From: Microthrixaceae bacterium
GTDB taxonomy: Bacteria; Actinomycetota; Acidimicrobiia; Acidimicrobiales; Microtrichaceae
Assembly: GCA_020845705.1 (NCBI GenBank)
Contig: JADLFH010000054.1
Coordinates: 24,099-88,098, forward strand
Length of the DNA: 64,000 nucleotides
Direction of reading: 5' to 3'
Part shown: positions 14,122 through 42,125 of the stretch, in pieces
Layout of the letters: each line of letters opens with the position of its first letter
Numbering within the stretch: the stretch's first letter is position 1
The notes under the pieces: model-generated
What the model was told of the DNA's origin: nothing
What the model saw: only the letters and a program-made list of their open reading frames with translations
Databases searched by the model: none
Program-made: the position numbers and the translations under genes

Positions 14122-14172
14122 CGAACTTGCGTACGGATCCGGCCTCTGGCGACGGAATCGTACGCAAGTTCG
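14122..14172 (+). repeat. 51-bp palindromic intergenic element, copy 1
   Basis: Perfect outer arms: CGAACTTGCGTAC at 14122-14134 and its reverse complement at 14160-14172. The stem extends inward with two mismatches. The left arm continues GGATCCG, which defines its orientation as plus. It lies between the protease start and the efeO-like stop. The same element of the same length occurs at 25712, 37456 and 42075. Confidence 0.9.
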
Positions 14173-14243
14173 TTGGATCTGCGGTGAGGGCAGCCGAATT
14201 GTCGGCTACCGTCACCCATTGGAACCAACCAACTGGTTCGCCG

Positions 14244-14942
14244 TCAGCTCTTGTCCGCCACGCTGAACGTCCCCACCATTCCCAACTCGGTGTGAGGCTT
14301 GTCGGTCTTCGGGTCGACCAGGATGCACTGGTACGTGTACTCGCCGGTCTCGTCGAAGCTGATGGTCGCCGCGCCGTCCTTGCCGACCTTTGTCGACTCG
14401 ACTTCGCCTATCGCCTCCCCGTCGGGGCCGAGCACCTCGAACTCGTGTGGTTCGGTTCCACCGTTGTGCATCTCGAAGCGGATGGTCTCACCCGCGGTCA
14501 CGTCGGAGAGGTCCAGGTTCTCGTACTCGAAGTCGATCGCGGTGAACTTCTTGGTGCGATCGGCCTTCTTCTGTGGGGTGCCGCCCTTTCCGGTGACCTC
14601 GATCTTGGTGGAGAACCCCTCGCCCGTCTGGCCGGGCTTGCAGCGCAGCTCGTAGCTGCCGGCCACCAGGTCGACATCGAGGGCCCTCTTGCTGCCAGTC
14701 GTCACGTTCTCCACCTCGCCGACCACCGAGCCGTCCTCTCGAAGGACGTACAGCTCGCTTATGTCGTCGGCCTCGTTGGTGAAGGCAAAGGTGAGCTTGC
14801 CGGCGTCAAGGTCGGTCTCGGTCGGCGTGCAGGCCTTGTTGGTACCGGTGACGGCTATCTCGGTGCCGCCTCCGTCGGACGTGCAGCCGACGGCCAAGGC
14901 GAATGTGAGCATCAGAGTCGGGAGTGCCAGGGCGCGTTTCAT
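14244..14942 (-). CDS. EfeO-like cupredoxin-domain lipoprotein
   Basis: 232-aa exported lipoprotein with lipobox LAVGC near residue 20. Two cupredoxin-like beta domains can be seen, roughly residues 28-115 and 125-230; the second has MHNGGTEPHEFEVLG and GEYTYQCILVDP, carrying His and Cys that could bind a metal. It lies 33 bases downstream of the FTR1 permease on the same strand, so the pair forms an Efe-type iron import unit in which this protein would deliver or oxidise iron outside the membrane. The peroxidase EfeB is not present nearby. Confidence 0.8.
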   Translation of the reverse strand: MKRALALPTLMLTFALAVGCTSDGGGTEIAVTGTNKACTPTETDLDAGKLTFAFTNEADDISELYVLREDGSVVGEVENVTTGSKRALDVDLVAGSYELRCKPGQTGEGFSTKIEVTGKGGTPQKKADRTKKFTAIDFEYENLDLSDVTAGETIRFEMHNGGTEPHEFEVLGPDGEAIGEVESTKVGKDGAATISFDETGEYTYQCILVDPKTDKPHTELGMVGTFSVADKS

Positions 14943-14975
14943 CTTCGTTGTCCTTGTCCGGGGGTCTGTTGGTTC

Positions 14976-15833
14976 TCAGGCGACGCTGTCTGTCATGGGG
15001 CTCGGTGTTCCCACGGCCCTACTGGTGGACGCTGCGTCGGCAGCTCGGATGGGCCGCAGGAACAGCGTCATCGTCGGAACGAGGTAGGCGAAATAGGCCC
15101 CGACCTCGAGCACGGTCATCTGGGGCGCGAAGTTGAAGATGCCCTTGAGTAGCGTTCCGTACCACGATGTGGCCGAGAAGCCCAGGTCCCAGGCGAGCGT
15201 GTTGAGCCCGGGGAGGAACGCCGCTTCCTGAAGGTCGTGGATGCCGTAGGCGAGTACCCCTGCTGCGATGACGATGAGCGCAGCGCCGGTGATCAGGAAG
15301 AACTTGCGGAGGTCGAGGTGGACCGCCCCCCGATACAGCAGCCAGCCCAACACGACCGCTGTGGCGATGCCCAGGACCGCGCCCAGTGCGGGGCCCACAC
15401 CCGCGCCCTGTGCTTCGAACGTGGGGTAGATGAACAGTGCGGTCTCGAGCCCCTCGCGGCCAACGGCCAAGAGCGCGGCTACCCCTACGGCGACGGGGCC
15501 GAGGGATACTGCGTCGCCCATCTTCCCCTCGAGTTCCGCCCTGAGCGTGCGTGCGGCGCGGCGCATCCAAAACACCATCCAGGTGACGAAGCCGACCGCG
15601 ACGATCGAGGTGATGCCGCCGAAGGCCTCCTGTGCCTCGAAGCTCATCGACGCCGAGGTGAAATGCAGCGTCGCGCCGAAGCCGAGGGACAACACGATTG
15701 CCACGGCAACGCCGATCCAAAGCGCCGGGATGCGATCCCGATGGCCTCCCTTGACGAGGAACGACAGAAGGATTCCCACGACCAGTGCCGCTTCGAGCCC
15801 CTCTCGCAATCCGGTCAGGAAGGTTTGCAGCAC
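14976..15833 (-). CDS. efeU: FTR1-family iron permease
   Basis: 285-aa membrane protein with seven predicted helices and both REGLE iron-coordination motifs (R10-E14 and R126-E130), diagnostic of FTR1/EfeU high-affinity iron permeases. The GTG at 15833 is chosen because GAGG lies eight bases before it and the resulting N-terminus, VLQTFLTGLREGLE, matches the family; a GTG at 15854 has no ribosome-binding site. An IdeR/DtxR-like box 50 bases upstream suggests repression by iron. Operon with the cupredoxin lipoprotein downstream. Confidence 0.93.
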   Translation of the reverse strand: MLQTFLTGLREGLEAALVVGILLSFLVKGGHRDRIPALWIGVAVAIVLSLGFGATLHFTSASMSFEAQEAFGGITSIVAVGFVTWMVFWMRRAARTLRAELEGKMGDAVSLGPVAVGVAALLAVGREGLETALFIYPTFEAQGAGVGPALGAVLGIATAVVLGWLLYRGAVHLDLRKFFLITGAALIVIAAGVLAYGIHDLQEAAFLPGLNTLAWDLGFSATSWYGTLLKGIFNFAPQMTVLEVGAYFAYLVPTMTLFLRPIRAADAASTSRAVGTPSPMTDSVA

Positions 15834-15882
15834 GTCGGCACCTCGACAACTCACGAGCGGAAGGAGATCCCGCTGCCTGATG

Positions 15883-15901
15883 TTAGGTTACCTTCACTCA
15901 A
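15883..15901 (-). promoter_or_regulatory. candidate IdeR/DtxR iron box upstream of efeU
   Basis: The 19-base site starts with a perfect half-site TTAGGTTA and matches 13 of 19 positions of the classical IdeR consensus (TTAGGTTAGGCTAACCTAA) by eye. It sits 50 bases upstream of the efeU start, a position suited to iron-dependent repression. The second half-site is weak. Confidence 0.55.
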
Positions 15902-15946
15902 CTGCCTGAACGTTGTCAAGTCGGAGGAGGTCCTACGCTGGAGACG

Positions 15947-16366
15947 GTGAACCGGGGGAAGGATCCAGCCGATCGAGAGTCGTTGGCCCACAGGCTGCGA
16001 GAGGCGGCCGAGGAGGCCGAACGTCAGACCGGCCGTCGCGAGGAGACGCCCGAGGAGCTGCGGCGCGGACTGTCACGAGAGCTGTTGCGTGCCGTGTTGG
16101 GCGTCGTGGTCATCATCGTGGGAGTCGCGGCACTTCCGCTTCCGGGGCCCGGCTGGCTGATCATCATCGTTGGCCTCAACCTGTTGCCGTTTGCGTGGGC
16201 CGAACGCACGGTGCGGCTCATCAGGCGGAGGGTGCCCGGAGTGCCCGAAGAAGGAAACGTGCCGGCTCACATGTGGATCATCATGGCGGCGCTGACGGCG
16301 CTGGTGACCATCGGCTCGATCCTCTGGGGCGACAACATCTCGGAGTGGGCGAGAGACCTGATCTGA
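15947..16366 (+). CDS. PGPGW-family (TIGR02611-like) membrane protein
   Basis: 139-aa protein with an acidic/basic amphipathic N-terminus of 45 residues, a hydrophobic hairpin interrupted by the family motif LPGPGWLII (about residues 64-72), a short basic loop, and a third helix near the C-terminus. The family is widespread in Actinobacteria and has no known function. The GTG start is seven bases after a TACGCT -10-like box at 15934-15939, suggesting a leaderless transcript. Confidence 0.75.
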   Translation: MNRGKDPADRESLAHRLREAAEEAERQTGRREETPEELRRGLSRELLRAVLGVVVIIVGVAALPLPGPGWLIIIVGLNLLPFAWAERTVRLIRRRVPGVPEEGNVPAHMWIIMAALTALVTIGSILWGDNISEWARDLI

Positions 16367-16482
16367 GGCAGGGCCCGGTCCGCTGTGCCTCAAACTCGTT
16401 CATGAGGCAGGAGGGGCCGGATACCGCACCGGTGTGCCTCAAGGATCGGTTTGAGGCAGCAGGGGCCGGGGGGTTTGAGGCA
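16364..16482. repeat. cluster of TGAGGCA/TGCCTCA inverted and direct repeats
   Basis: The heptamer TGAGGCA occurs at 16364, 16403, 16452 and 16476, and its complement TGCCTCA at 16386 and 16435. The first two pairs can form hairpins with GC-rich loops; the last two copies are preceded by TT and followed by AGGGGCC-like or AAGGGCC sequence. The cluster fills the gap between two convergent genes and starts at the stop codon of the left one, so it probably helps end transcription from both sides. Confidence 0.7.
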
Positions 16483-16492
16483 GGAAGGGCCG

Positions 16493-18010
16493 TCAGATCG
16501 GGCGGGGGAACGTTGCGAACTGGGTCACCGGAGACCCCCGGTACCTGGCGTCCACACCGAGGAAGGAGACGGTGACGTCCTCGGGTGTGCATTCGACGAT
16601 CCCATAGCCGTTGCGGGAGGCGTCCACCAGATCCCAAGCCGGTTGCAGCGATGCCGCCAGCGCGCTCTGTTGGTCACCCGGTGGCGACGCGATCGCTCCG
16701 CCCGCGTACTCGTAGGCGACCGCCGGCGAGCTGCTGTCCTCGAAGTCGGCTCGGATCGGGCCGGCCCAGAACGAGTGGATGTCGCCGGTCAGGATGGTGA
16801 CCCCGCCGATCCGCTCGCTGACCAGATGGGAGATCAGCCTCTCGCGTTCCGCCGGGAATCCGTCCCATGCGTCGCTGTTCAGGTAGAGGCCGGCGTGTCT
16901 CAGCAGTGACGGGTCGAGTGCCCGCAGCTCGGGGGTGTCGAGGTCGAGCAGCCGAACCGCTCCGATGAGGACCGGGTTGCCCAGGAGCTGGTGACGGACC
17001 CCGGCGTCGTTCGACGCGGCGAGCCCGCCCAGCAACCACGAGAGCTGTTCGGCCCCCAGGATCGTGCGGTCACTTCGCGCCAGCTCCGGAGTCAGGAAGG
17101 TGACACCCAACAGGGTGTCCACCGGCGGGTCGCGGTACTGCCGCTCGTCGAGGAGGTGGAGCTCCGCGAGGCGCCCGAAGCGCAGCGACCGGAAGATCCG
17201 CGTGCCGTCGACCGGCATCACCGGCTGGTGTTCGAACCATGCCTGGGTGGCCGCGGCGAAGCGGACGGGGTTCAAGGTGATGTCGGTCCGGTTCCAGTCG
17301 TTGTGGAGCTCGTGGTCGTCCCACACCACGGCCCAGGGGTGGGCCGCCTGTGCTGCTTGGATGTCGGGGTCGCTGCGGTAGAGGCGGTACTTGGTGCGGT
17401 AGTCCTCGATCGTCACGCACTCGGCGACCGGCTCGGATCGAACCGGCCTCAGCAACTGGATTGCGCCTGCCTCGTAGATGAAGTCGCCGAGGAACACGAC
17501 ACCGTCGAGGTCGCGGGCCGCCACGTCGCGCCAGGCCGGGTAGTAGCCGGTCCCGTAGCACTGGCAGCTCGCGTACGCGAGTCGCAGCGACTCGAGCTCT
17601 GCGTCGGGCTCGGGGAGCGTGGAGGCACGGCCGACGGTCGAACGCACCCCGCCTGCCTCGAACCGGTACCAGTATGAACGGCCCGGCTCCAGGCCCCCGA
17701 CGAGCACCTTGACGGTGTGATCCGACGCCGCCTCGACTACCTCGGTCCCGCTCGCGACGACCGGCGACATCGACGGCGACGTCGAGACCTGCCAGTCACA
17801 CGAGTTGACCGAGGGGGCGACGAGTGGCTCGACGCGGGTCCACAGCACCACCTCGGTGTCGGAGTGGAAACCCGATGCGACGCCTTGCGCGAAGGTCGAG
17901 GTGGGGGCGTAGGCGGGTGGACTGGTGCAGGAGGTGAGCAGCCCCGGAGCGGCCATCGCGCCGGCTCCCAGCGCGCTCATACGTAGGAAATCCCGCCTGT
18001 CCAGCCCCAT
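16493..18010 (-). CDS. PhoD-like alkaline phosphatase/phosphodiesterase (copy 1)
   Basis: 505 aa, start MGLDRRDFLRMSALGAGAM with a Tat twin-arginine signal and a lipobox-like LLTSC. The metal-site blocks of the PhoD family are present: VFLGDFIYE, WDDHELHNDW, and LTGDIHSFW. Exported and folded before export; releases phosphate from phosphodiesters outside the cell, with Ca/Fe expected. GGAG lies just before the ATG, and a TATCCT box upstream (about 18041-18046) could be its -10. A second PhoD protein is encoded at 24054. Confidence 0.9.
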   Translation of the reverse strand: MGLDRRDFLRMSALGAGAMAAPGLLTSCTSPPAYAPTSTFAQGVASGFHSDTEVVLWTRVEPLVAPSVNSCDWQVSTSPSMSPVVASGTEVVEAASDHTVKVLVGGLEPGRSYWYRFEAGGVRSTVGRASTLPEPDAELESLRLAYASCQCYGTGYYPAWRDVAARDLDGVVFLGDFIYEAGAIQLLRPVRSEPVAECVTIEDYRTKYRLYRSDPDIQAAQAAHPWAVVWDDHELHNDWNRTDITLNPVRFAAATQAWFEHQPVMPVDGTRIFRSLRFGRLAELHLLDERQYRDPPVDTLLGVTFLTPELARSDRTILGAEQLSWLLGGLAASNDAGVRHQLLGNPVLIGAVRLLDLDTPELRALDPSLLRHAGLYLNSDAWDGFPAERERLISHLVSERIGGVTILTGDIHSFWAGPIRADFEDSSSPAVAYEYAGGAIASPPGDQQSALAASLQPAWDLVDASRNGYGIVECTPEDVTVSFLGVDARYRGSPVTQFATFPRPI

Positions 18011-18099
18011 CTCTCCAAACCCCCGAACTCGAGTGACTCGCCGCCGAGGATAGAGCAAGGGAACAGCCCGAGCCCAGCGGATGTGGCCTCAGGACTGCG

Positions 18100-19521
18100 T
18101 CAGGCCTTGAACCGCCACTTCCTCTCGAAAGGCAGCCGCCAGGTGTGGGGCGAGATGAGCGCGTGCATCGCCACCGGCCCCCACGATCCAGGTGCATAGG
18201 TGTGCACGTCCGGCGGGCTGGTCAACAGCGGTTCCGCCACCTCCCAGAGCCGCTCGATGCCCTCGCTGGAAGTGAACAGCGTCTGGTCGCCGGCCATTGC
18301 GTCGAGCACGAGTCGCTCGTAGGCCTCCAGCACCTCCTCCTCCTGGTCGGTTTCGTGGAGGGCGAACTGGAGGCTGAGCTTGTCCAACACCATGCCTGGC
18401 CCCGGACGCTTCCCGTAGAAGGAGAGCGACAGCTTCGAGGAGTCGGCGAGGTCGAAGGTGAGGTGATCCGGTCCCAAGGTGCCCACGCCGGAGCCCGTTG
18501 GGAACATCGACTTCGGTGGTTCGCGCCAAGCGATCGAGACGATTCGGGCTCCCTCGGCCATGTGCTTTCCGGTGCGGAGGTAGAACGGCACACCGGCCCA
18601 GCGCCAGTTGTCGATCTCGCAACGCAGAGCGATGAACGTCTCGGTCTGGCTGTCGGGGGCGACGCCCTCGATCAGGCGGTATCCCTGGTACTGGCCCCTG
18701 ACAACCTGGTGGATGTCTATGGGCACCATCGAGCGGAAGACCTTGTTCTTCTCCTCGTTGATCGCTCGGGGCTCCAGCGCTGTGGGTGGTTCCATGGCGA
18801 CGAAGGCGAGGATCTGGAACAGGTGGGTGACGACCATGTCGCGGAATGCGCCCGCTTGCTCGTAGAAGGCGGCGCGGTTGTTGACCGCGAGGGTTTCGGG
18901 CACGTCGATCTGGATGTGGTCGATGTGCTGGCGGTTCCAGATCGGCTCGAAGAGCCCGTTGGCGAAACGGAATGCAAGGATGTTCTGCGCCGGCTCCTTG
19001 CCGAGGAAGTGGTCGATCCGGAAGATCTGGTCCTCGTCGAAGAAGTCCATCACGTTCGCGTTGAGTGCCCGTGCCGTCTCGAGGTTTGTGCCGAACGGCT
19101 TCTCCATGACGATCCGCGCCCGGTTGCTGAGGCCGCTCTTGCCGAGCGTCCGAACCACCTGGGTTGCCGCAGCGGGCGGGATGCTCAGGTAGTGGAGGCG
19201 GCGAGCGTGGTCGCCCAGCGTGGACTCGGCGTGTTCCACCGCTGCCACCAACTCGTCGGCGTTCTCGGACAGCGCGGCGAAGCTGAGCCGCTCGACGAAT
19301 CCGCTCCAAGCGCTGTCGGTGACACCTCCGTGGACGTATTCGTCACACGCCCTCCGGGCGAGGTCACGGAACCGCGTCGTGTCGGAATCGTCGATGGAGG
19401 TTCCGATGATGCGGTAGTCGGGGAGGAACCCGGCCTTGTGCAGTCGATACAGCCCCGGAATCAGCTTGCGGCGGGCCAGGTCTCCCGTGGCTCCGAACAA
19501 CACGATCACATGCGGGTCCAT
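18100..19521 (-). CDS. zwf: glucose-6-phosphate 1-dehydrogenase
   Basis: First oxidative step of the pentose phosphate pathway, making NADPH. The 473-aa protein begins [19 protein letters not shown] (nucleotide-binding fold) and has the active-site [14 protein letters not shown] and FRTG-like (YLRTGKHM) blocks. The ATG at 19521 gives the family N-terminus; an in-frame start 14 codons earlier adds unrelated residues. No opcA, tal or gnd gene is adjacent. Confidence 0.96.
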
Positions 19522-19591
19522 TGGGCACCCCCCGTTGGTCGTCGAGAACCCCGGGTTCCTCATCGGCGGAAACGGGGTGTTCCTGAGACGG

Positions 19592-22500
19592 TCAGGGAGT
19601 GGCTCTGTGGTCCACCTCCAACCACACGCGGAGATCCCCGGTGTCGATCACCGGAGACCTGCCCTCGGGATCGTCGCCGTGTTCGAAGGATGTGGCCAAC
19701 ACCTCCTCCGCGATCGCGGAGCGGTGCTCCTCGATCGCCGAGGCCAACCCGCCCTCGGCCGCCCAGCGGAGGTGGATGCGGTCCGCCACGTCGAAGCCCG
19801 AGGTCTTCCGGCCCTCCTGCACGAGGCGGACCACCTCACGGGCCGCTCCGAGCGAAACCAGCAGGGGCGTGAGCTGAAGGTCGACGGCGATCGTCTCGGC
19901 GCCTTCGGAGGCCACCGCCCATCCCTCCCGGGGGGTCTCGGTTATCACGACATCCTCGGCGTCGAGATCGACGGCCGTGCCGTCGATGCTCACCGATGCC
20001 GATCCGGCCGCCACAGCGGCTGCCAGTGCCGTCGGATCGGCGTCGCGGATCGCCGCGGCGATCTCCTGAACCGCGGCGCCGTGCTTTGCTCCCAGGGAAC
20101 GGAAGTTGGGCTTAGCGCTCACGTCGGTGAGCGTCTCGGCCGACCCGAGGGTCTCCACCGCCTGGACGTTCAGTTCGTCGATCACGCTCCGGCGGAGATC
20201 GTCGGGCAACTCGGCCCAGCCGTGCGCACCCACCAGCGCCCGCGAGAGCGGTTGGCGGGTCTTGATCTTCTGTGAGGCACGGGCGGAACGGCCGAGCTCG
20301 ACGAGGCGGCGGGTCAATTCGACCTGGTCCTCCAGCCGCGTGTCGATGCGGGCTTCCTCGGCGCTGGGCCACTCCGCGAGGTGCACCGAGACGGGGTCGT
20401 TCCCGGAGCGGATCGCAGACCAGATCCGTTCGGTGACGAAGGGGGTGAAGGGCGCCATGAGCCGCACCAGCGTGTGGAGCACCTCTCGCAACGTTGCCAG
20501 GGCGGCCGGGTCGCCCTGCCAGAAGCGTCGCCGTGAACGACGCACGTACCAGTTGGACAGGTCGTCGAGGAACGCGGCGATGTGCTTGCCGGCGCCCGCG
20601 GTGTCGAAACTCTCCAGCTCCTCGGTCACCTCGACCACGAGCCGGGCGAGTCGCGAGTGCGCCCAGGCGTCGAGGGCGTTGGGGGTGCCCGGGTCGGAGG
20701 CGGCGGGATCCCAGTCCGACACGGACGCGTAGAGCGTGAAGAACGCGGAGGTGTTCCACAGCCCCAGCACCACCTTGCGGACGACCTCCTCGATGTTGGT
20801 GTGGCCCACGCGACGGGCGTTCCAGGGGGATCCGCTGCACAGCATGAACCAGCGCACAGCGTCGGCGCCGTGCTCGTCGAGCAACGGCATCGGGGCGATC
20901 ACGTTGCCGAGGTGCTTGGACATCTTGCGACCGTCCTCGGCGAGGATGTGGCCCAACACCACGACGTTCTCGTAGCTGGAGCGGTCGAAGACGAGCGTCC
21001 CCACCGCCATCAGGGAGTAGAACCAGCCCCGGGTCTGGTCGATCGCCTCGCAGATGTACTGGGCGGGGTAGGCGGCCTCGAAAACATCTGCGTTCCGGAA
21101 CGGATGGCCGAACTGGGCGAAGGGCATCGCGCCGGAGTCGTACCAGACATCGATCACCTCGCTGACGCGGCGGGCCGGCTGCCCGCAGGTGGGGCAGCCG
21201 AAGGTGACCTCGTCGACGAAGGGCCGATGGGGGTCGAGCCCGGCGCAGTCGGTTCCGCTCAGCTCGGAGAGGTGAGCGAGCGACTCCACGGCGGTCTCGT
21301 GGTCGTCGGGGCAGATCCAGATCGGCAGGGGAGTGCCCCAGTAGCGCGACCGTGACAACGACCAGTCCACGTTGCCCCGCAACCAGTCGCCGTATCGGCC
21401 CCACTTCACCGTCTCGGGTACCCAGTTGGTGCGCTCGTTCTCCTCCAGCAGGCGGTGGGAGATCTCGGTTGTCCGGATGTACCACGACGGCAGCGCGTAG
21501 TTGAGCAGGGGCATGTGGCAACGCCAGCAATGGGGGTAGGCGTGCTCGTAGGGCAGCTCGCGCAGCAGGATCCCCCTCGATCGGAGATCCTCGATGATGG
21601 GCGGGTTCGCGTCACGGAACCAGAGGCCGCCGACTAGGGGAATCGCCGGTTCGAAGTGGCCGTCGAGCTGGATCGGGTTGACCACCTCCATTGCGGCCGA
21701 GCGGATCGCGGCGAGGTCCTCGGCGCCGAACGCGGGGGCGAGGTGCACCAGGCCGGTGCCGTCGCTGGTGGTCACGTGCTCCGCGGCGATGACGCGGTGT
21801 GCGTCGGGGATCTCCACCAGATCCAGGGGGCGACGGTACGCCCAGCCGACCAGCTCGGTTCCCTTCCAGCGGCCGCTTGTGGTCGCGTCGTCGCCGACGG
21901 CTCGTTCGACGAGCTCCTCGGCGACGATCACGGCTCGGCCACCGTCGGCCGGGGTGGCTGCCACATACGTGGCCTCCTCGGCCACGCCGACAGCTGTGTT
22001 GGACACGAGGGTCCAGGGGGTGGTGGTCCACACCAGCAGGTCGGCGTCGGGTACGCCGTCGCCCTCGACAAGTGGAAAGCGCACGTAGATCGACGGGTCG
22101 ACGATGTCCTCGTAGCCCTGCGCGACCTCGTGGTCACTCAGGCCGGTGCCGCAACGGCCGCAGTAGGGGGCGACCCGGAAGTCGCGCACCAACAGGCCCT
22201 TCGAGTGGATTTGAGCGAGCGACCACCACACCGACTGGATGTAGTCGCGATCCATCGTCCAGTAGGCCTCGTCGAGGTCCACCCAGTAGCCCATCCGCCG
22301 GGTCATGACGTTGAACTCGTTGACGTGGCGGGTCACCGACTCGCGGCAGCGGGCGTTGAACTCGGCGATGCCGAACTGCTCGATGTCCGGCTTGCCCGAG
22401 ATGCCGAGCTCCTTCTCGACGGCGATCTCGACCGGCAGACCATGGCAGTCCCACCCGGCGATGCGAGGCACGTAGCGGCCGCGCATCGTCTGGAACCGAG

Positions 22501-22735
22501 GGAACACGTCCTTGAAGGCTCGTGCCTCGATGTGGTGGGTGCCGGGCAGGCCGTTCGCGGTGGGCGGACCCTCGTAGAACGTCCAGCGTTCGGCGCCTTC
22601 ACGAGCGGCGAGGGAGCGCTCGAAGATCCTCTCCCGCTCCCACCAGTCCAACAGCTCGTGCTCCATGGCGACGAGGTCCACGGTGTTGGGTAGTCGGGTC
22701 CTCTGCGCCGCTGTGGCGTCGTCGTGGGTCGTCAC
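19592..22735 (-). CDS. ileS: isoleucine--tRNA ligase
   Basis: 1047-aa class Ia synthetase. The HIGH-equivalent is PGTHHIEAR near residue 65, the KMSKS-equivalent is KMSKHLGN near residue 625, and paired cysteines (CWRCHMP, CPTC) lie in or beside the editing/insert regions. Length and motifs fit the longer eukaryote-like type II IleRS, the type that tends to resist mupirocin. GTG start. It occupies its own transcription unit, between zwf and an MFS gene on the same strand. Confidence 0.96.
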
Positions 22736-22783
22736 GGTCTCAACCCTCGCGCGTCGGCGAGCAGGGCGACCAACCTCTGCCCC

Positions 22784-23995: not shown

Positions 23996-24053
23996 GGGTC
24001 GAGACTACGGCAGCGCGTCTACCGTGGAGTCCCCGGGTAGCGAATGGGGGACC

Positions 24054-25655
24054 ATGGACAGGCGTCGTTTCCTCGGAGGATTGGCTGCGATCGGTGCGGT
24101 GACGGCCTGCTCCTCAGACGACGGTGAGACCGATCGAAGCGGGACGCCCGACGTGTCGAGAACCACTCCGGTGACGGCCGCGCAGCCTGCCGAGGTGGCT
24201 CTTCCGGAAGGTGTGTTCGGCTTGGGCGTTGCCAGCGGGGATCCACTTGCCGACCGCGTGGTGCTGTGGACCCGTCTCGCGCCAACGCCCGAGGTCGTCG
24301 GCGGGGCAAGCCCCGACATCGACGTGGAGGTCGCGTACGACGTGGCGACCGACGAGCGCTTCGAGCGCCTCGTCGCTTCAGGGGTGGCAGTCGCCCGTCC
24401 ACAACTCGCATCCTCGGTTCATGTGGACGTGACGGGGCTGAGGCCCGACACCTGGTACTGGTACCGGTTCCGGGCCGGCGGTCAGACCTCGCCGGTGGGG
24501 CGCACGCGGACCTTCCCCGCGGCGGACGCGGCGGCCGAGCGGTTCCGTTTCGTGTTCGCATCGTGCCAGGACTTCCAGTGGGGCCACTACGGCGCGTGGG
24601 CGAGAGCCGCGGAGCAGCCGGACCTGGACGCGGTGGTGTTCCTCGGCGACTACATCTATGAGATCTCCCTGGGCGACATCTCGCCGAAGGAGGACGGCAG
24701 CCGGGTGTGGGCGTCGCCGGTGCCCATGACGGTGGAGGACTACCGCTGGCGCTACGCACAGACGAAGGCGGATCCGAGCCTCCAGGCGGCCCACCATGCC
24801 GTGCCTTGGATAGTGACCTTCGACGACCACGAGATCGCCAACAACTACGCGGGCGACATCGGCCAGGCCGACGGGGGAGAACCCGCCGGCCGCGACCGTC
24901 GCCTCGCCGGTTACCAGGCGTGGTACGAGCACACGCCGATCCGCGTCGAGCCTGAGCCGTCGAGCTTCGATGGTCTTCGAGTGCATCGGGCGAGCTCGTT
25001 CGGGTCGTTGGCTCGGATGTTCGTCATCGAGACTCGCCAGCACGCGGACCCGCCGCCGTGTCGGACGGGCGCCGATCTGCTGACCGATGACGGACCGCTC
25101 TGCGCCGAGGCGGAGGACCCGGGGCGCACCAATCTCGGGCCCCAACAGGAGGAGTGGCTGCTGGGCGAGCTTCGGGAGAGCTCGGCTACGTGGAACGTGC
25201 TCGCGAACCCGGTGATGTTCGCGGGCCTCAACATCGGCACCGCCGAAGAGCCCCGCTACACCCGCGACATGTGGGACGGTTACCCGGCGGTTCGGGCGAG
25301 GTTGTTGAAGGCGATCGTCGAGGCGGAGGTGTCGAACCCGGTGGTGGTCACCGGAGACTGGCATGCGACCTACGTGTTGGACGTGAAGGAGGCGCCTGAG
25401 GGGCCAACGGTCATGCCGGAGTTCCTGGTCACGTCGATAACCAGCGTCAACTTCGGCACCGACTACCGGGCGAACAACCCTCACGTCCGCTACTTCGCCG
25501 TCAACCACGGGTTCGCGTTGGTAACGGTCACCCCTGAGGAGTTCCGCTGCGAATTCCATGCCGTCGAGGACGTTTGGGACCCCGACACGACGATCTCCCA
25601 GGTCGACACGTGGCGTGTGAAGGCCGGCTCGCGCGAAGCGGAATCGGTGACGTAA
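24054..25655 (+). CDS. PhoD-like alkaline phosphatase/phosphodiesterase (copy 2)
   Basis: 533 aa from ATG 24054 (MDRRRFLGGLAAIGAVTAC), a combined Tat signal and lipobox (C19), so an exported lipoprotein. PhoD blocks are clear: VFLGDYIYE, TFDDHEIANNY, VVTGDWHATY, plus the N-terminal fibronectin-like domain with VVLWTRLAP. Only distantly similar to the copy at 16493, so they are not a recent duplication. It is divergent from the MFS gene, and a TACCGT box at 24020-24025 may be its -10. Confidence 0.9.
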   Translation: MDRRRFLGGLAAIGAVTACSSDDGETDRSGTPDVSRTTPVTAAQPAEVALPEGVFGLGVASGDPLADRVVLWTRLAPTPEVVGGASPDIDVEVAYDVATDERFERLVASGVAVARPQLASSVHVDVTGLRPDTWYWYRFRAGGQTSPVGRTRTFPAADAAAERFRFVFASCQDFQWGHYGAWARAAEQPDLDAVVFLGDYIYEISLGDISPKEDGSRVWASPVPMTVEDYRWRYAQTKADPSLQAAHHAVPWIVTFDDHEIANNYAGDIGQADGGEPAGRDRRLAGYQAWYEHTPIRVEPEPSSFDGLRVHRASSFGSLARMFVIETRQHADPPPCRTGADLLTDDGPLCAEAEDPGRTNLGPQQEEWLLGELRESSATWNVLANPVMFAGLNIGTAEEPRYTRDMWDGYPAVRARLLKAIVEAEVSNPVVVTGDWHATYVLDVKEAPEGPTVMPEFLVTSITSVNFGTDYRANNPHVRYFAVNHGFALVTVTPEEFRCEFHAVEDVWDPDTTISQVDTWRVKAGSREAESVT

Positions 25656-25711: not shown

Positions 25712-25762
25712 CGAACCTGCGTACAAACCCGCGGTTCCGCGACGGATCCGTACGCAGGTTCG
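25712..25762 (-). repeat. 51-bp palindromic intergenic element, copy 2 (inverted)
   Basis: Arms CGAACCTGCGTAC at 25712-25724 and GTACGCAGGTTCG at 25750-25762. Relative to copy 1, both arms carry a change at the same paired position (T to C and A to G), so the pairing is kept. Its GGATCCG lies in the right arm, so it is inverted. A partial extra copy of the outer arm (ccgaacccgcgg) lies just left, at about 25692-25703. Confidence 0.9.
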
Positions 25763-31544: not shown

Positions 31545-31551
31545 CCCCCCG

Positions 31552-31609
31552 ACCGGTTCTGTGTTGCGGATCACGACGCTCGCGTCGTGTCTCGCAACAC
31601 AGAACCGGT
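31552..31609. terminator. 58-bp long palindrome after ndk
   Basis: Outer arms of 17 bases pair perfectly (ACCGGTTCTGTGTTGCG at 31552-31568 with its complement at 31593-31609). After a three-base bulge a second 8-base stem (CACGACGC/GCGTCGTG) closes the tip. It starts eight bases after the ndk stop. There is no T-run, so it may act as a strong hairpin terminator or RNA-stability element, or be a dispersed repeat seen once here. Confidence 0.65.
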
Positions 31610-32766: not shown

Positions 32767-32783
32767 CCCTCGGTCCTCCGGCG

Positions 32784-36206: not shown

Positions 36207-37327
36207 TCACGACAACGCCCACGAGTCGGCTCCGCAACCGTGACATGACGGCGGCGTGGCGACACATCGACTTCGTGCTGGTGGCGCTGGTTGCCGTGGC
36301 GGCGTCCTTCGGCGCGCTGATGGTGTATTCGACGACGAGGCACCACAGCGGTACGTCGACCGTTGGCAAGCACCTGATGTTCGTCATCATCGGCTTCGGG
36401 GCGATGGGTGCGTGCGCGGCAATCGACTACCAGCGCCTGCGGGACTGGGCGCGTCCGATCTACGTGGGGATGGTGGCCCTCCTCGGTGGGGTGCTGGCCT
36501 TCGGCAGCACTCACCGAAACATCAAGGCGTGGTTCGACATCGGCCCCATCCAGGTCCAGCCCGCGGAGCTGGCGAAGCTCGCCACGATCGTGGTGTTGGC
36601 GTCGTATCTCGGGACCATCGGAGACCGACTTCGGCTCCGTCACCTCGTGGTTGCCCTGGTCGGGCTGGGCATACCGATCGGGTTGATCCTCATGCAGCCG
36701 GACCTGGGCACGACTCTCGTTTTCGTGGTGATCGGTGCGGGCATGCTGGTGGTCGCCGGCATCCCCATGAAGTACCTGGGACTGTTGTTGGTGATCGGCG
36801 TTATCGGCGTCGGTTACATCCTCAACTCCGACACGCTCGACCAGTACCAGAAGGAGCGACTGCTGGCCTTCGCAACGCCGGATCGGGTGAGCGAAAAGGT
36901 CAGCTACAACACCCAGCGTTCCCAGGAGGCTGCCGCCGCGGGCGGTTTCAGCGGCCAAGGCCTCTTCGAGGGCCCCCAGACCAGGGGCGGGTTCGTGCCC
37001 GAGCAGGAGACCGACTTCATCTTCACCGTGCCTGCCGAGGAGCTCGGCTTCATCGGCGCGGGGGGCCTGTTGGTGTTGCTCGGGCTCATCACATGGCGGA
37101 TCTGGCGTACGGCGCAGCTCGCCCGTGACGAGATAGGGCGGCTGATCTGCGTCGGGGTGTTGTGCATGTTCGTGTTCCACATCTTCGAGAACGTGGGCAT
37201 GAACCTGGGCATCATGCCCGTGACGGGCATCCCGCTCCCCTTCATCAGCTACGGGGGTTCTGCGATGATCGCCACTTTCGCAACCATGGGTCTGGTGATG
37301 AACGTCCACATGCGTCGGTTCTCCTGA
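36203..37327 (+). CDS. rodA: RodA peptidoglycan glycosyltransferase
   Basis: SEDS-family polymerase, 374 aa with about ten helices. Conserved stretches include QPAELAKLATI, MQPDLGTTLV (catalytic Asp), and the C-terminal GIPLPFISYGGSAM. The GTG overlaps the mrdA stop (GTGA), giving the usual PBP2-RodA pair. Last gene of the mre cluster; a 14-bp tandem repeat and a palindromic element follow. Confidence 0.95.
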   Translation: MITTTPTSRLRNRDMTAAWRHIDFVLVALVAVAASFGALMVYSTTRHHSGTSTVGKHLMFVIIGFGAMGACAAIDYQRLRDWARPIYVGMVALLGGVLAFGSTHRNIKAWFDIGPIQVQPAELAKLATIVVLASYLGTIGDRLRLRHLVVALVGLGIPIGLILMQPDLGTTLVFVVIGAGMLVVAGIPMKYLGLLLVIGVIGVGYILNSDTLDQYQKERLLAFATPDRVSEKVSYNTQRSQEAAAAGGFSGQGLFEGPQTRGGFVPEQETDFIFTVPAEELGFIGAGGLLVLLGLITWRIWRTAQLARDEIGRLICVGVLCMFVFHIFENVGMNLGIMPVTGIPLPFISYGGSAMIATFATMGLVMNVHMRRFS

Positions 37328-37349
37328 TCGGCTGGATGCCCTCGGGCCT

Positions 37350-37419
37350 CCGTCGCTCCGGCTCCGTCGCTCCGGCTCCGTCGCTCCGGCTCCGTCGCTC
37401 CGGCTCCGTCGCTCCGGTT
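37350..37419. repeat. 14-bp tandem repeat, five units
   Basis: Five head-to-tail copies of CCGTCGCTCCGGCT; the fifth has one change (GGTT) and a degenerate sixth (CCGTCACTTGG) follows. The unit is not a multiple of three, and the array lies between rodA and the next gene. It is not a CRISPR: there are no spacers. Confidence 0.95.
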
Positions 37420-37455
37420 CCGTCACTTGGCCTGGCTCGGCCCAGGCCCGCCCGC

Positions 37456-37506
37456 CGAACTTGCGTACGGATCCGCCCTCGGCCCACGGATTCGTACGCA
37501 AGTTCG
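37456..37506 (+). repeat. 51-bp palindromic intergenic element, copy 3
   Basis: Perfect 13-base arms CGAACTTGCGTAC (37456-37468) and complement (37494-37506), with GGATCCG in the left arm, plus orientation. The stem extends inward (GGATCCG against CGGATTC). It follows the 14-bp tandem array by 37 bases. Confidence 0.9.
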
Positions 37507-37560
37507 TCCAGGGGAGCCCTCGGCGGATCGGCTGTAACCAATCGTGTGACCTTCGACCAG

Positions 37561-37566
37561 TAGAAT
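37561..37566 (+). promoter_or_regulatory. -10 box of the B12-radical-SAM gene
   Basis: TAGAAT, nine bases before the ATG at 37576, with no ribosome-binding site between them. Confidence 0.45.
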
Positions 37567-37575
37567 GGCCCGAAC

Positions 37576-39528
37576 ATGACTTCGATCTGGCCCCAGCTGG
37601 AACCGCTGCTGGCCAAGGTGCAGAAGCCCGCTCGCTACATAGGGTGCGAGGACGGCGCAATCCAGCCGAACTGGCACCCAGCATCCGTGTCGTGGTTGTT
37701 GACCTACCCCGACACGTATGAGATCGGTCTCCCGAACCAGGGTCTGCAGATCCTCTACGACATCCTGAACTCCCGAAGCGACTCAGTCGCAGAGCGCTCC
37801 TACGCGCCGTGGCTGGATCTGGAGGCGGAGATGCGGGCGGCCGGCGTTTCCCTCTTCTCGGTCGACACCCATCGTGGCGCAGGCGATTTCGACGTCATCG
37901 GGTTCAATCTCTCCGCCGAGCTCAACTACACGAACCTGCTCAACCTCATCGACCTGGCGGGCGTTCCGGTGCGAACCGCTGCCCGCCGGCCACACCACCC
38001 GCTCATAGCGGTCGGCGGACACTGCACCTACAACCCCGAGCCAGTCGCCGACTTCGTCGACTTCGTGGTCCTGGGCGACGGCGAGGAGATCGCCGGTGAG
38101 ATCACCGAGGTCATCGGCGAGTGGAAGCGCTCCGGCCGGGAGAGCCGAGACGAAGTCCACCTGGCGCTGGCGAAGCTCGACGGCGTCTACGTGCCGTCGC
38201 TCTACGACATCACCTACGACGGGCCGGCGCTGGTCGCGGTCACACCCAACCGCCCGGGCGTGCCCGAACGGGTGGAGAAGCGAACCATCTCAGATCTGGC
38301 CGACTGGCCCCACCCCCGTCGACAGCTGGTGCCACTCACCGAGGTCGTCCACGATCGCCTCAACGTCGAGGTCTTCCGAGGCTGCACCCGTGGATGTCGT
38401 TTCTGCCAGGCGGGGATGATCACGCGCCCGGTGCGCGAGCGCCCTGCGGATCAGGTGCGCACCATGGTGCTCGAAGGGCTGCGTCGCACCGGCTACGACG
38501 AGATCGCCCTCACCTCCCTGTCATCCGCCGACTTCTCCGGCATCGAGTCGGTGGTCCAAGGCATCGTCGATGATCCGACGAACTGCGGTCAGGTGAGCGT
38601 GTCGTTGCCGTCGCTGCGGGTGGACGCGTTCGGCGTGGGGATCGCGGCGCAGATACAGAAGGCCCGTCGCACCGGCCTGACCTTCGCCCCCGAGGCGGGC
38701 ACCTGGCGGATGCGGCAGGTGATCAACAAGCTCATCCGAGAGGAGGACCTCTACCAGGCAGTCGATGCCGCCTACTCCCAGGGATGGCGGCGGATGAAGC
38801 TCTACTTCCTCACCGGCCTGCCGACCGAGACCGACGAGGACACCCTGGGTATCGCCGAGCTGGCCCGCAACGTGGTGCAGCTCGGCAAGGCGCACCACAA
38901 GAACCCGTCGGTGACGGTGTCCGTGGGTGGGTTCGTCCCCAAACCGCATACGCCGTTCCAGTGGTTCGGGCAGAACACGGCGGTCGAGCTGCAACGCAAG
39001 ATCAACATCCTCCGAGACGCCACCCGCCGTGAGAGAGGCGTCGATCTGAAGTGGCACGACCCCAAGGCCACCCTGGCAGAAGGCCTGGCGAGCCGCGGCG
39101 ACCGCCGCCTCGGCGATGTGATCGAGGACGTGTGGCGGCGCGGCGGAACCTTCCAGGAGTGGTCGGAGTGCTTCCGGCTGGACCGGTGGGAGGAGGCCAT
39201 GGCGGCTCACGGCCTCGACATCGAGTGGTACGTGTACCGGCATCGGAGCGAGGACGAGGTGCTGCCCTGGGGGCACATCTCGGCGGGGCTGCACCAGGAC
39301 TTCCTCTGGCAGGAGTGGCGCGACGCATTGGCGGAGGTCGGGCTTCCCGACTGCCGCTGGACGCCGTGCTACGACTGCGGCGCCTGCACGGGCTACTCCA
39401 TAGAGCACGTCGTTGCGTCTGCGGTGCCTCCGGGCGGCGGGAGCCAGGGGACCGGCCAGGACCTCGCCACGGCGGGTGCGGTGTCGGTGACATTGCTTCG
39501 CCGACGCGAGGAGGTGGGTGCCCCATGA
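37576..39528 (+). CDS. B12-binding-domain radical SAM protein (TIGR03960 family)
   Basis: 650 aa. An N-terminal cobalamin-binding-like domain (about 35-190) includes SWLLTYPDTYEIGLPNQGLQ. The radical-SAM core has the cluster motif C270-x3-C274-x2-C277 in RGCTRGCRFCQAG, and GLTFAPEAGTWRMRQVINK follows. A cysteine-rich C-terminal segment (CYDCGACTGYS) may hold a second cluster. The protein family is conserved beside RNase E/G and DUF2344 genes in many bacteria; its reaction is unknown, possibly an RNA or ribosome modification. Stop overlaps the next start. Confidence 0.88.
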   Translation: MTSIWPQLEPLLAKVQKPARYIGCEDGAIQPNWHPASVSWLLTYPDTYEIGLPNQGLQILYDILNSRSDSVAERSYAPWLDLEAEMRAAGVSLFSVDTHRGAGDFDVIGFNLSAELNYTNLLNLIDLAGVPVRTAARRPHHPLIAVGGHCTYNPEPVADFVDFVVLGDGEEIAGEITEVIGEWKRSGRESRDEVHLALAKLDGVYVPSLYDITYDGPALVAVTPNRPGVPERVEKRTISDLADWPHPRRQLVPLTEVVHDRLNVEVFRGCTRGCRFCQAGMITRPVRERPADQVRTMVLEGLRRTGYDEIALTSLSSADFSGIESVVQGIVDDPTNCGQVSVSLPSLRVDAFGVGIAAQIQKARRTGLTFAPEAGTWRMRQVINKLIREEDLYQAVDAAYSQGWRRMKLYFLTGLPTETDEDTLGIAELARNVVQLGKAHHKNPSVTVSVGGFVPKPHTPFQWFGQNTAVELQRKINILRDATRRERGVDLKWHDPKATLAEGLASRGDRRLGDVIEDVWRRGGTFQEWSECFRLDRWEEAMAAHGLDIEWYVYRHRSEDEVLPWGHISAGLHQDFLWQEWRDALAEVGLPDCRWTPCYDCGACTGYSIEHVVASAVPPGGGSQGTGQDLATAGAVSVTLLRRREEVGAP

Positions 39529-40235
39529 GGGTCCGCGTGCGCTTCACGAAGCTGGGACGGGTGCGCTTCGTGTCCCATCGCGATGTCGCCCGGGTTTGGG
39601 AGCGGGCCATTCGTCGGGCGGAGCTGCCCATCGCATACAGCGAAGGGTTCTCTCCGCGCCCGAAGGTGCACTTCGGGCTGGCGCTGTCGGTGGGGCACAC
39701 CTCCGACGCCGAGTACCTCGACCTGGACCTGCGTGACCCCGTCGAGCTCACCACGCTGCCGCAGCGGCTGACACCGTGCCTCCCCGTGGGGATCGACGTG
39801 ACGGCGGCGGCCGAGGTGGCCACGAGCGACACGTCGTTGCAGGCGGCGGTCGATGTCGTCACATGGCGTTTCCTCGTCGACGGCGATCCCACGTCGGTCG
39901 GTCGAGCTGCCGAAGAGATGATGGCCCGACCCTCGATTCCCACGGTGATCAACCGCAAGGGGAACGACCAGCAGGCGGACCTTCGCCCCGCGCTGCGCTC
40001 GATCACCGTCGAGGCCGCGGCAGAGGGCACTGCGCAACTCACCGTCAACCTCGCCACGCGACCGAAGAGCTTTCGGCCGGCCGAGGTGTTGACGGCATTC
40101 GATCCACCGCTGGGGGAGCGGCGCGTGCACAGGATCGAGCAATGGATCATCGATGACGACGGCGCACTCCAGCCCCCACTGGCAGCCCGTCTCGACACTG
40201 TTGGCCCGCCGGAACCCTGTCTCCGAGCCGGCTGA
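39525..40235 (+). CDS. DUF2344 / TIGR03936 family partner protein
   Basis: 236 aa starting MRVRVRFTKLGRVRFVSHRD, with the family signature of a basic N-terminus and AYSEGFSPRPKVHFGLALSVG near residue 40. In many genomes this domain is fused to the C-terminus of the radical-SAM protein encoded just upstream; here it is a separate gene coupled by an ATGA overlap. Function unknown; expected to act with that enzyme. Confidence 0.88.
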   Translation: MRVRVRFTKLGRVRFVSHRDVARVWERAIRRAELPIAYSEGFSPRPKVHFGLALSVGHTSDAEYLDLDLRDPVELTTLPQRLTPCLPVGIDVTAAAEVATSDTSLQAAVDVVTWRFLVDGDPTSVGRAAEEMMARPSIPTVINRKGNDQQADLRPALRSITVEAAAEGTAQLTVNLATRPKSFRPAEVLTAFDPPLGERRVHRIEQWIIDDDGALQPPLAARLDTVGPPEPCLRAG

Positions 40236-40270
40236 AGCGGCGCAGGTGCGCCGCACGAGAGGACGTTCAC

Positions 40271-42004
40271 ATGACCGACGAACCGACCATCGATTCAGAC
40301 CCGAGCAACCAGAAGAGCCAGCCATTCCTCATTCCGAAGACACCTCCTCCCCAGCCCCGCGTGGTCACCGATTCGGCGGCTGACGCCAACGCGAACGACT
40401 CCACCTCTTCCCCGGATGGCCCCAAGCCGCCGGGCAGCGGGAATCGCCGCCGCCGTCGACGCCGAGGCGGTGGCGGGGGTGGCGGGGGAGCTGGTGGTGG
40501 ATCCCAGCCCGGGAGCCAGCCAGGAGGCGCCCAAGCCCAGGGCGCCAAGACGAATCGAGGCCAAGTTGCCCAGGGTGGCCAGCGAAGCGGGGGCGCCGGC
40601 AAGGCCGGGGGGTCAAAGCCGCCACCGACCCCGGTCGAAGCCGTGCTCGTGGACGATGGCGGTCCACTGAACCTCGACGCCAAGACGCTGAAGAAGAGGT
40701 CGGGCCGCCAGCGCAAGGGCAAGGCGGTCGGTCGCTATCAGATGAACGTCCACGTGGATCCTGAGGGCCAGACCCACATCGCCGTCCTCGAGGGTCGCTC
40801 GCTCATCGAGCACTTCGTGTCCCGCCCCGCAGACGACATCTCCCAGATCCACGGAAACATCTACATCGGCCGCGTCGAGAACGTGCTGCCCGGGATGGAA
40901 GCGGCGTTCATCGACATCGGTACCCCGAAGAACGCCGTGCTCTACCGCGGCGATATCCACTACGACCCCGAGGACGTGCAGGAGAAGGGGCCCCAGCCGC
41001 GGATCGAGGACGTGTTGAAGGCGCGTCAGCTCATCCTCTGCCAGGTCACAAAGAACCCCATCGGACACAAGGGCGCACGGCTCACCCAGGAGGTGTCGCT
41101 GCCGGGCCGATTCGTCGTGTTGGTGCCGAACAACGGCACCTACGGCATCTCCAAGCGCCTCCCCGACAACGAGCGAAAGCGCCTGCGCAACATCCTCGAC
41201 AAGGTGAAGCCGAAGGAGCACGGCGTCATCGTGCGAACGGCGGCGGAGAACATCACCGCCGAGGAGATCGAGCGCGACGTGGCCCGCCTGCTGAAGCAGT
41301 GGGAGCAGATCGACGCGTTGGCGAGCAAGCAGAAGGGACCTGCGCTGCTCTACCGCGAGCCCGACATGGCCGTGCGGGTCATCCGGGAGGAGTTCAACAA
41401 GGAGTACCGGGCGGTGTTGATCGACGACGAGGACCTCTACGGGGAGGTACACGACTACGTCGCGGCGATCTCTCCGGCTCTGGGGGACCGGGTCGGCTAC
41501 TACGACAAGGACACCGAGACTCTCCCGCTGTTCGAGCGCTATCAGGTCACCGAACAACTGAAGAAGGGCCTCGACCGCAAGGTGTGGTTGCCCTCGGGTG
41601 GGTCGCTCATCATCGAACACACAGAGGCGTTGACGGTCATAGACGTGAACACCGGCCGAAACGTCGGCTCCTCCAGCCTCGAGGAGACCGTGCTGCACAA
41701 CAACCTAGAGGCGGCCGTCGAGATAGCGCGGCAACTGCGCCTTCGTGACATCGGGGGGATCATCGTCATCGACTTCGTCGACATGGAGGTGAAGGCCAAC
41801 CGTGACGAGTTGGTCCGCACGTTCAAGGAGGCCCTGAGTCGCGACAAGACGCGCACCCAGGTGTTCTCCGTGTCGGAGCTGGGTTTGGTGGAGATGACCC
41901 GCAAGCGCATCGGCGAGGGTCTGTTGGAATCGTTCGCGGATCAGTGCGGAGTGTGCCACGGTCGCGGCGTCGTCATGTCCTCGTCCGTCGTCGATTTCAC
42001 CTAG
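40271..42004 (+). CDS. rng: ribonuclease E/G family endoribonuclease
   Basis: 577 aa. The first about 150 residues are a low-complexity tail with an Arg cluster (NRRRRRRR) and a Gly run, likely an RNA- or partner-binding region. From YQMNVHVDPEG on, the S1-like domain (GNIYIGRVENVLPGMEAAFIDIG), the catalytic Asp residues (TVIDVNTG and IDFVDM) and the zinc link CGVCHGRG are present. Cuts single-stranded AU-rich RNA in rRNA and mRNA processing. It is closer to RNase G in lacking a C-terminal scaffold, but the N-terminal tail is typical of actinobacterial RNase E. An rne name is equally defensible. Confidence 0.9.
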   Translation: MTDEPTIDSDPSNQKSQPFLIPKTPPPQPRVVTDSAADANANDSTSSPDGPKPPGSGNRRRRRRRGGGGGGGGAGGGSQPGSQPGGAQAQGAKTNRGQVAQGGQRSGGAGKAGGSKPPPTPVEAVLVDDGGPLNLDAKTLKKRSGRQRKGKAVGRYQMNVHVDPEGQTHIAVLEGRSLIEHFVSRPADDISQIHGNIYIGRVENVLPGMEAAFIDIGTPKNAVLYRGDIHYDPEDVQEKGPQPRIEDVLKARQLILCQVTKNPIGHKGARLTQEVSLPGRFVVLVPNNGTYGISKRLPDNERKRLRNILDKVKPKEHGVIVRTAAENITAEEIERDVARLLKQWEQIDALASKQKGPALLYREPDMAVRVIREEFNKEYRAVLIDDEDLYGEVHDYVAAISPALGDRVGYYDKDTETLPLFERYQVTEQLKKGLDRKVWLPSGGSLIIEHTEALTVIDVNTGRNVGSSSLEETVLHNNLEAAVEIARQLRLRDIGGIIVIDFVDMEVKANRDELVRTFKEALSRDKTRTQVFSVSELGLVEMTRKRIGEGLLESFADQCGVCHGRGVVMSSSVVDFT

Positions 42005-42074
42005 ACGAGAAGTCCCAAGGAGTATCAAGGCTCACAACCTGAGCGGACTTGGGGAGGACGAGCCCTCCCCTTCG

Positions 42075-42125
42075 CCAACTTGCGTACGGATCCGGCGCCT
42101 GGCGACGGAAACGTACGCAAGTTCG
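42075..42125 (+). repeat. 51-bp palindromic intergenic element, copy 4
   Basis: Arms 42075-42087 and 42113-42125; one mismatch at the second base of the left arm (CCAACTTGCGTAC against complement of GTACGCAAGTTCG). GGATCCG lies in the left arm, plus orientation. Located between RNase E/G and rplU, upstream of the rplU promoter. Confidence 0.88.

What the first reader, a model, noticed from the sequence alone, without database searches (positions are those of the whole stretch)
14122..42125. A family of exactly 51-bp palindromic elements, four copies, all between genes
Copies at 14122-14172, 25712-25762, 37456-37506 and 42075-42125 have the same length, 13-base outer arms and a conserved GGATCCG next to one arm; copy 2 is inverted. 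The central 15-20 bases vary. None lies in a gene. At one stem position copy 2 differs from the others in both arms (T to C, A to G), so base pairing is preserved. This suggests a selected structure or a mobile REP/MITE-like unit copied by an enzyme outside the window. No transposase is present here.
Basis: seen in the sequence. Interest (0 to 1): 0.72.

Follow-up and report, generated by a model that had tools for sequence, protein, structure and literature searches.

The report
Hairpin repeats paired with nuclease genes
The four 51-base hairpins belong to a family of at least 80 copies, nearly all between genes, in this uncultivated bacterium, and hairpins of the same build stand as matching pairs around genes for a predicted DNA-cutting enzyme that likely spreads them; this would be a new, transposase-free kind of bacterial repeat.

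Summary
The four 51-mers belong to a family (A) of at least 80 copies in this 75%-complete, Acidimicrobiales-like genome, nearly all intergenic and rare in divergent gaps. Versions with changed arms but kept pairing occur in other genomes of the order. Instead, genes for an AbiEi-like domain fused to a Vsr/homing-endonuclease-like domain (DUF559) are flanked on both sides by matching repeats, mostly palindromes of about 50 nt, usually private to each gene: 42 of 70 genes against 1 of 116 neighbouring genes; 10 of 10 in one single-contig genome. The window also holds solo copies of two other palindromes, B (31555-31606) and C (16387-16457), whose copies flank two such genes elsewhere in the same genome. 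Best reading: a REP-like system run by an unrelated enzyme. Shown: flanking pairs, dispersal, predicted fold, genome-wide arm changes. Inferred: binding, cutting, copying. Gap: no nuclease gene flanked by family A itself was found in this incomplete genome.

The parts
14122..14172 (+). family A palindrome, copy 1 (GGATCCG arm first)
   Evidence: 71 bp downstream of the 3' end of a minus-strand gene by my calls
25712..25762 (-). family A palindrome, copy 2 (inverted)
   Evidence: between a plus-strand gene end and a minus-strand tRNA-Gly
37456..37506 (+). family A palindrome, copy 3
   Evidence: not found in the orthologous gap of G001
42075..42125 (+). family A palindrome, copy 4
   Evidence: not found in the orthologous gap of G001
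31555..31606 (.). solo family B palindrome (52 nt); its copies flank the nuclease gene at G000:C58:87160-88059
   Evidence: 83% and 88% identical to the two flanks, at most 65% for 200 random 52-mers
16387..16457 (.). solo family C double hairpin (71 nt) in a convergent gap; its copies flank the nuclease gene at G000:C29:82038-82922
   Evidence: 76% and 77% identical to the two flanks, at most 63% for 200 random 71-mers
42001..42020 (+). left end of the longer element D around copy 4
   Evidence: 2 mismatches to the pattern; right end degenerate

Best explanation
The four 51-bp elements are solo copies of a REP-like hairpin family with at least 80 copies in this genome, built like the palindrome pairs that flank genes for AbiEi-DUF559 proteins in this and related genomes, and they are likely spread and kept alike by such a protein, which is predicted to bind its palindrome and cut DNA there. 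Shown: the dispersed family; matching palindromes on both sides of most AbiEi-DUF559 genes tested; solo copies of two such flanking palindromes (B, C) in the window; a two-domain predicted fold; arm changes shared genome-wide in each of two congeneric genomes. Inferred: the AbiEi-like half recognises the arms (AbiEi antitoxins bind inverted repeats: PMC7319586, abstract); the Vsr/I-Bth0305I-like half nicks or cuts at the palindrome, perhaps when it is extruded as a hairpin; repair copies the palindrome, or palindrome plus gene, to another place or over an older copy. Gaps behind stop codons tolerate such insertions, which would explain the location.
For: Matching up/down repeats at 42 of 70 AbiEi-DUF559 genes against 1 of 116 other genes in the same loci; by source 19 of 29 best model matches, 23 of 40 picked by list before their flanks were seen, 0 of 1 seen earlier. 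57 of 89 distinct genes in the larger set. 17 of 25 genes in five genomes taken whole, 10 of 10 in G005. 41 of 52 flanking repeats are more palindromic than the best of 20 shuffles. B and C solo in the window and flanking nuclease genes in the same genome. G005's flanking palindromes are 78-86% identical to two of three solo copies compared and 67-71% to the third. Fold: residues 1-192 like AbiEi 6y8q, 200-300 like homing endonuclease I-Bth0305I and Vsr. Genome-wide arm versions in G046 and G099. Hairpin carriers have the gene in 22 of 23 cases against 116 of 273 others (my tally; Fisher 5e-7).
Against: No nuclease gene flanked by family A was found: the three in G000 carry B, C or an upstream hairpin only, and A pairs about 1 kb apart flank unrelated genes. 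The genome is 75% complete. 28 of 70 genes lack a matching pair at the threshold and 8 of 25 in the unselected set. The link between protein and palindrome divergence rests on four of 1,326 pairs that share a palindrome, two of them between proteins over 60% identical and two at 30-41%; the rank correlation is about zero (-0.01) and only the Pearson test is significant (1 of 2,000 permutations). 116 genomes have the gene but no hairpin match, though the hairpin model was narrow and capped at 19 candidates per genome. The location after genes also fits an RNA role. Two pairs of nuclease units in congeneric genomes sit at the same place, so units are not always mobile. No binding, cutting or movement was tested.
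Confidence: 0.55

Rival explanations
1. The palindromes are bidirectional transcription terminators or RNA 3'-end hairpins that multiplied because they are useful behind genes; nuclease genes carry a pair merely to insulate themselves.
For: 20 of 60 hosting gaps are convergent and 7 divergent, against 12 and 67 of 150 non-host gaps in the stretches held; median distance 47 bp to 3' ends and 132 bp to 5' ends. In G046 and G099 several sit within about 25 bp of a stop codon. Stable stems.
Against: A run TTTT follows the stem in 1 of 158 foot readings, so no classical U-tract; tandem arrays of up to five; sequences that match on both sides of one gene but differ between genes are not needed for a terminator; window copies 3 and 4 are missing from G001's gaps.
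Confidence: 0.2
2. The flanking palindromes are operators: the AbiEi-like half represses its own gene by binding them, and solo copies are leftovers or decoys; the nuclease half does something else, such as defence.
For: AbiEi antitoxins autoregulate through inverted repeats (PMC7319586, abstract); the N-terminal fold matches; one palindrome usually lies just upstream of the gene.
Against: An operator does not explain the matching copy downstream of the gene or a family of at least 80 copies behind other genes.
Confidence: 0.12
3. A RAYT or another transposase now missing from the assembly, or the D-type MITE, spread family A, and the nuclease link is a coincidence of shared build.
For: Some copies lie in elements with ends CTAGACG..GTTCCAAGG / CCTTGGAACC..CGTCTAG; about a quarter of the genome is missing (ff.).
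Against: No Y1_Tnp in any of the six genomes with matches, one of them a single contig; GTAG within 6 nt of a foot in 0 of 79 copies; 27 D-arm matches against 10 for the reversed control, fewer than the 80 A copies. DDE transposases were not searched.
Confidence: 0.1

Closest known systems
REP elements with RAYT (TnpA-REP) transposases: Nunvar 2010, PMC2817692 (abstract and outline read); Di Nocera 2013, PMC3733652 (passages read)
   Same: Many dispersed extragenic palindromes, some in arrays; the enzyme gene lies between two of its own palindromes; several families in one genome.
   Different: Enzyme of another superfamily (AbiEi plus Vsr-like nuclease); palindromes of about 50 nt rather than 20-40; no GTAG tag.
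CGTC REPs (Di Nocera 2013, PMC3733652, passages)
   Same: Dispersed palindromes without a RAYT.
   Different: Short 8-9 bp stems with a CGTC tag, described as lacking a dedicated transposase; CGTC lies near a foot in 3 of 79 family A copies.
Vsr / DUF559 nucleases and the homing endonuclease I-Bth0305I
   Different: Fused to an AbiEi-like half and flanked by its own palindromes; no intron or mismatch-repair context was examined.
AbiEi type IV antitoxins
   Different: Fused to a nuclease; a partner AbiEii toxin gene was not searched for.
Composite MITEs and BOX-like modular repeats (recalled)
   Same: Element D holds A, C or both as modules between terminal inverted repeats.
   Different: Most A copies have no D ends nearby.

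Membership tests
REP / RAYT (GTAG REPs) | Many dispersed extragenic palindromes in one genome | tested here: met
   At least 80 copies, 78 of 80 outside called genes
REP / RAYT (GTAG REPs) | GTAG tetranucleotide at one foot | tested here: not met
   0 of 79 copies within 6 nt of a foot
REP / RAYT (GTAG REPs) | Y1 (RAYT) transposase gene in the genome, flanked by REPs | tested here: not met
   PF01797 in none of the six genomes with matches; four of them are incomplete, so absence is firm only for the more complete ones (G005, G046)
MITE | Terminal inverted repeats and target-site duplication | tested here: inconclusive
   D ends around a subset only; duplication not established
Intrinsic terminators | G+C-rich hairpin followed by a T run | tested here: not met
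   TTTT within 9 nt after the stem in 1 of 158 readings
DUF559 / Vsr-like nucleases (the partner protein) | Pfam DUF559 match and Vsr-like fold | tested here: met
   DUF559 over its cut-off in 3 of 3 and 5 of 6 proteins; model of the C58 protein
Palindrome-flanked AbiEi-DUF559 class (proposed here) | Palindrome family flanks an AbiEi-DUF559 gene in the same genome | tested here: inconclusive
   Met for window families B and C; not found for family A in a 75%-complete genome
Palindrome-flanked AbiEi-DUF559 class (proposed here) | The protein binds, cuts and spreads its palindrome | not testable with these tools
   Needs biochemistry

The most novel reading that the evidence does not exclude
A second, RAYT-independent class of REP elements: a homing-type, Vsr-fold nuclease fused to an AbiEi DNA-binding half owns a private palindrome of about 50 nt, lives between two copies of it, and seeds it by cut-and-repair into dozens of gaps behind genes, with several such nuclease-palindrome pairs coexisting in one genome.
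Probability: 0.5. Interest if true: 0.9.

Novelty: new variant of a known kind. Interest (0 to 1): 0.8.

Why it matters
REP-type palindromes are common bacterial repeats, and the dedicated enzyme described for them in the papers seen here is the RAYT; one superfamily (CGTC REPs) is described as apparently lacking a dedicated transposase (PMC3733652). If a Vsr-fold nuclease plays that part in Acidimicrobiales, the origin of orphan palindromes becomes directly testable, and AbiEi-DUF559 proteins, named by one source as very-short-patch-repair endonucleases or hypothetical proteins, get a concrete substrate to try. No paper joining DUF559 or AbiEi nucleases to dispersed palindromes showed up in the listings (open-access library only; listed papers not read). 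MTES_1575 is described as a Vsr-type REase domain fused to other domains in PMC3710099 (passages), which holds neither DUF559 nor AbiEi.

Tried and rejected
Chance: rejected. One gene-conversion tract: rejected, since the copies lie on dozens of contigs. RAYT: not supported. Rfam: only two tRNAs in the window at gathering scores. Genes between family A copies at C70:73123/74462, C135:7018/8001, C165:10947/12475 and C43:42051/44208 were read: none looks like a nuclease. A hairpin pair in G276 flanks a gene that looks like a nitronate monooxygenase (name from recall), so it does not count. Exact 18-mer in genome contigs: 0 stretches, own genome possibly left out. Viral contigs: none confirmed. 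Plasmids: four Thermus records at 31% over 54% of the query and one weak Aliivibrio match. My first pattern had a miscounted spacing and missed even the window copies. The first hairpin detector missed some known flanks, so one search compares flanks without assuming palindromes. A lower threshold (36) gives 46 of 70 against 3 of 116. In one search, one of the 30 best loci gave no tested gene, genes with under 70 bp of flank on either side, alignments under 200 residues and identical proteins were dropped. Genes were called by my own codon-usage script, not by a standard gene finder. Model R2 is loose: trained on copies with very different arms, it partly recognises a build rather than a sequence. 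Of the six carriers, G056 has one match at E 0.009 and one G007 match looks like coding sequence.
Full report
What is there. The four elements are as described: 51 bp, two 20-position arms around an 11-nt centre, one arm ending in GGATCCG. They are members of a family (A). A fixed-spacing pattern finds 73 copies in the genome that holds the window (G000, 2.89 Mb in 193 contigs, 75% complete) and none in the reversed control. A covariance model gives 150 rows on both strands, from which I read out 80 places; this is a lower bound because only 150 of 3,505 candidates were scored, and one of the 80 is weak (29 bits). By my own gene of the 80 lie between two called genes, 10 have a called gene on one side only (most near contig ends) and 2 overlap a called gene. 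In 60 distinct gaps, 20 are convergent, 33 codirectional and 7 divergent, against 12, 71 and 67 non-host gaps of at least 60 bp in the stretches held; those stretches were chosen around copies, so the background is local. Some copies form tandem arrays of nearly identical units, up to five in the congener G001. The best named hits to a window protein (76% identity or less) are mostly Acidimicrobiia and Acidimicrobiales MAGs.

Structure. Inside G000 the stem varies too little to show covariation. Between genomes it is clear: 17 of 24 pairs change on both sides and no shuffle matches any of five measures, with the caveat that the relatives were found by a model that rewards pairing. Two congeneric genomes of another family add to this: in G046, 12 of 16 held copies begin xGAAG, and in G099 all 11 read copies begin xGAAC; at the one site shared by both, each genome has its own version. 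The arms change together across a genome, as expected if copies are remade from one another. The other ten G099 sites are not among the held G046 loci, which does not prove absence.

Movement. Copies 3 and 4 of the window were not found in the orthologous gaps of G001, where the gaps are 70 and 63 bp instead of 248 and 213 bp. The aligned stretches are 74-85% identical, so exact junctions cannot be read. Some copies sit in a longer element, D, with ends CTAGACG..GTTCCAAGG and CCTTGGAACC..CGTCTAG (27 pattern matches against 10 in the reversed control). D ends are seen with A, with C, or with both, so A and C behave as separate modules.

No RAYT. PF01797 is absent from all six genomes with matches and present in 5 of the other 55. 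GTAG is at the feet of 0 of 79 copies.

The nuclease link. In a scan of 298 genomes of the order, 23 had hairpins of this build. In several, two hairpins stood about 1 kb apart. In five (G086, G190, G294, G119, G231) the gene between them encodes a member of one protein family; the G190 gene is split over two frames. Pfam on three of the five gave DUF559 over its cut-off in all three and AbiEi_4 in two. In a sixth genome, G276, the gene between is unrelated. I then tested AbiEi-DUF559 genes in general, comparing 300 bp upstream with 300 bp downstream without assuming palindromes: 42 of 70 have a matching repeat, against 1 of 116 other genes in the same loci, and that one adjoins such a unit. 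By source this is 19 of 29 best matches to the model, 23 of 40 picked from the list before I had seen their flanks, and 0 of 1 seen earlier. In five genomes taken whole, 17 of 25 genes pass, including 10 of 10 in G005, a single contig. Of 52 flanking repeats examined, 41 are more palindromic than the best of 20 shuffles; 35 score 12 or more, and 31 of these are 41-54 nt long. The palindromes mostly differ from gene to gene: 4 of 1,326 pairs share one, two between proteins over 60% identical (2 of 2 such pairs) and two at 30-41%. Genomes with the hairpins nearly always have the gene: 22 of 23 against 116 of 273, my tally, whose genome sets differ slightly; G267 has no match listed.

Back to the window. 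G000 has three AbiEi-DUF559 genes. The one at C58:87160-88059 is flanked by a palindrome, B, that stands alone in the window at 31555-31606 and at C136; the downstream copy overlaps the end of the called gene. The window copy is 83% and 88% identical to the two flanks, while 200 random 52-mers reach at most 65%. The gene at C29:82038-82922 is flanked by double hairpins, C, which also stand in nine other gaps of the 0.54 Mb held, one of them in the window at 16387-16457 (76-77% identity; random at most 63%). The third gene, at C97, shows no matching pair; I read a hairpin upstream only. So the window holds three palindrome families, and for two of them a nuclease gene with the same palindrome on both sides is in the same genome. 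For family A, the one I was given, the partner was not found. This is the weakest link.

Mechanism. I commit to nuclease-driven spread: recognition of the palindrome by the AbiEi half, a cut or nick by the Vsr half, copying by repair. Flanking pairs, dispersal, predicted fold and genome-wide arm changes are shown; binding, cutting and copying are inferred. The main rival is a terminator or RNA 3'-end role, which the location fits but the lack of T runs, the arrays and the paired flanks do not. Both could be true: a mobile hairpin tolerated because it sits behind genes. Two units compared between congeneric genomes are at the same place, so units can also be inherited in place.

Known or new. 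The design is that of RAYT and REP, an enzyme gene between two of its own palindromes (PMC2817692, abstract), but the enzyme is unrelated, the palindromes are longer and the tag is missing. I therefore call it a new variant of a known kind, not a member of the RAYT-REP family.

Noticed in passing
42001-42020 and 14219-14230; elsewhere G000 C45:135274, C31:14711, C113:10512, C171:4016: Ends of a longer element D (CTAGACG..GTTCCAAGG / CCTTGGAACC..CGTCTAG) around some A and C copies; its TAG often coincides with the stop codon of the gene before it.
   Followed up: partly
37348-37430: Tandem 14-bp repeat (CTCCGTCGCTCCGG) just before copy 3, absent from the shorter gap of G001.
   Followed up: no
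L226:660-710 (G042): Another family's genome has a 51-nt palindrome with other arms in the orthologous gap before the same gene as window copy 3 (E 2.9e-4).
   Followed up: partly
17471-17512 and 24621-24662: 86% complementary stretches inside two oppositely oriented genes that look like paralogues; the encoded motif resembles PhoD phosphatases (from recall).
   Followed up: no
G005:C1:2669270, G046:C26:67, G099:C184:19688, G069:C50:635 and others: Several AbiEi-DUF559 genes carry an in-frame stop, as expected of decaying selfish genes; sequencing error not excluded.
   Followed up: no
G000 contigs C31, C43, C59, C62, C80, C102, C135: Copies or arrays lie at contig ends, so the repeats break the assembly and the true copy number is probably higher.
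   Followed up: no
L315 (G292) 2690-3442: The one control gene with strongly matching flanks adjoins an AbiEi-DUF559 unit, so a further copy of that palindrome lies on its far side.
   Followed up: partly
G276 C125:10820-11922 (L284): Two hairpins 1 kb apart flank an unrelated gene that looks like a nitronate monooxygenase (from recall); pairs alone do not prove a nuclease unit.
   Followed up: partly
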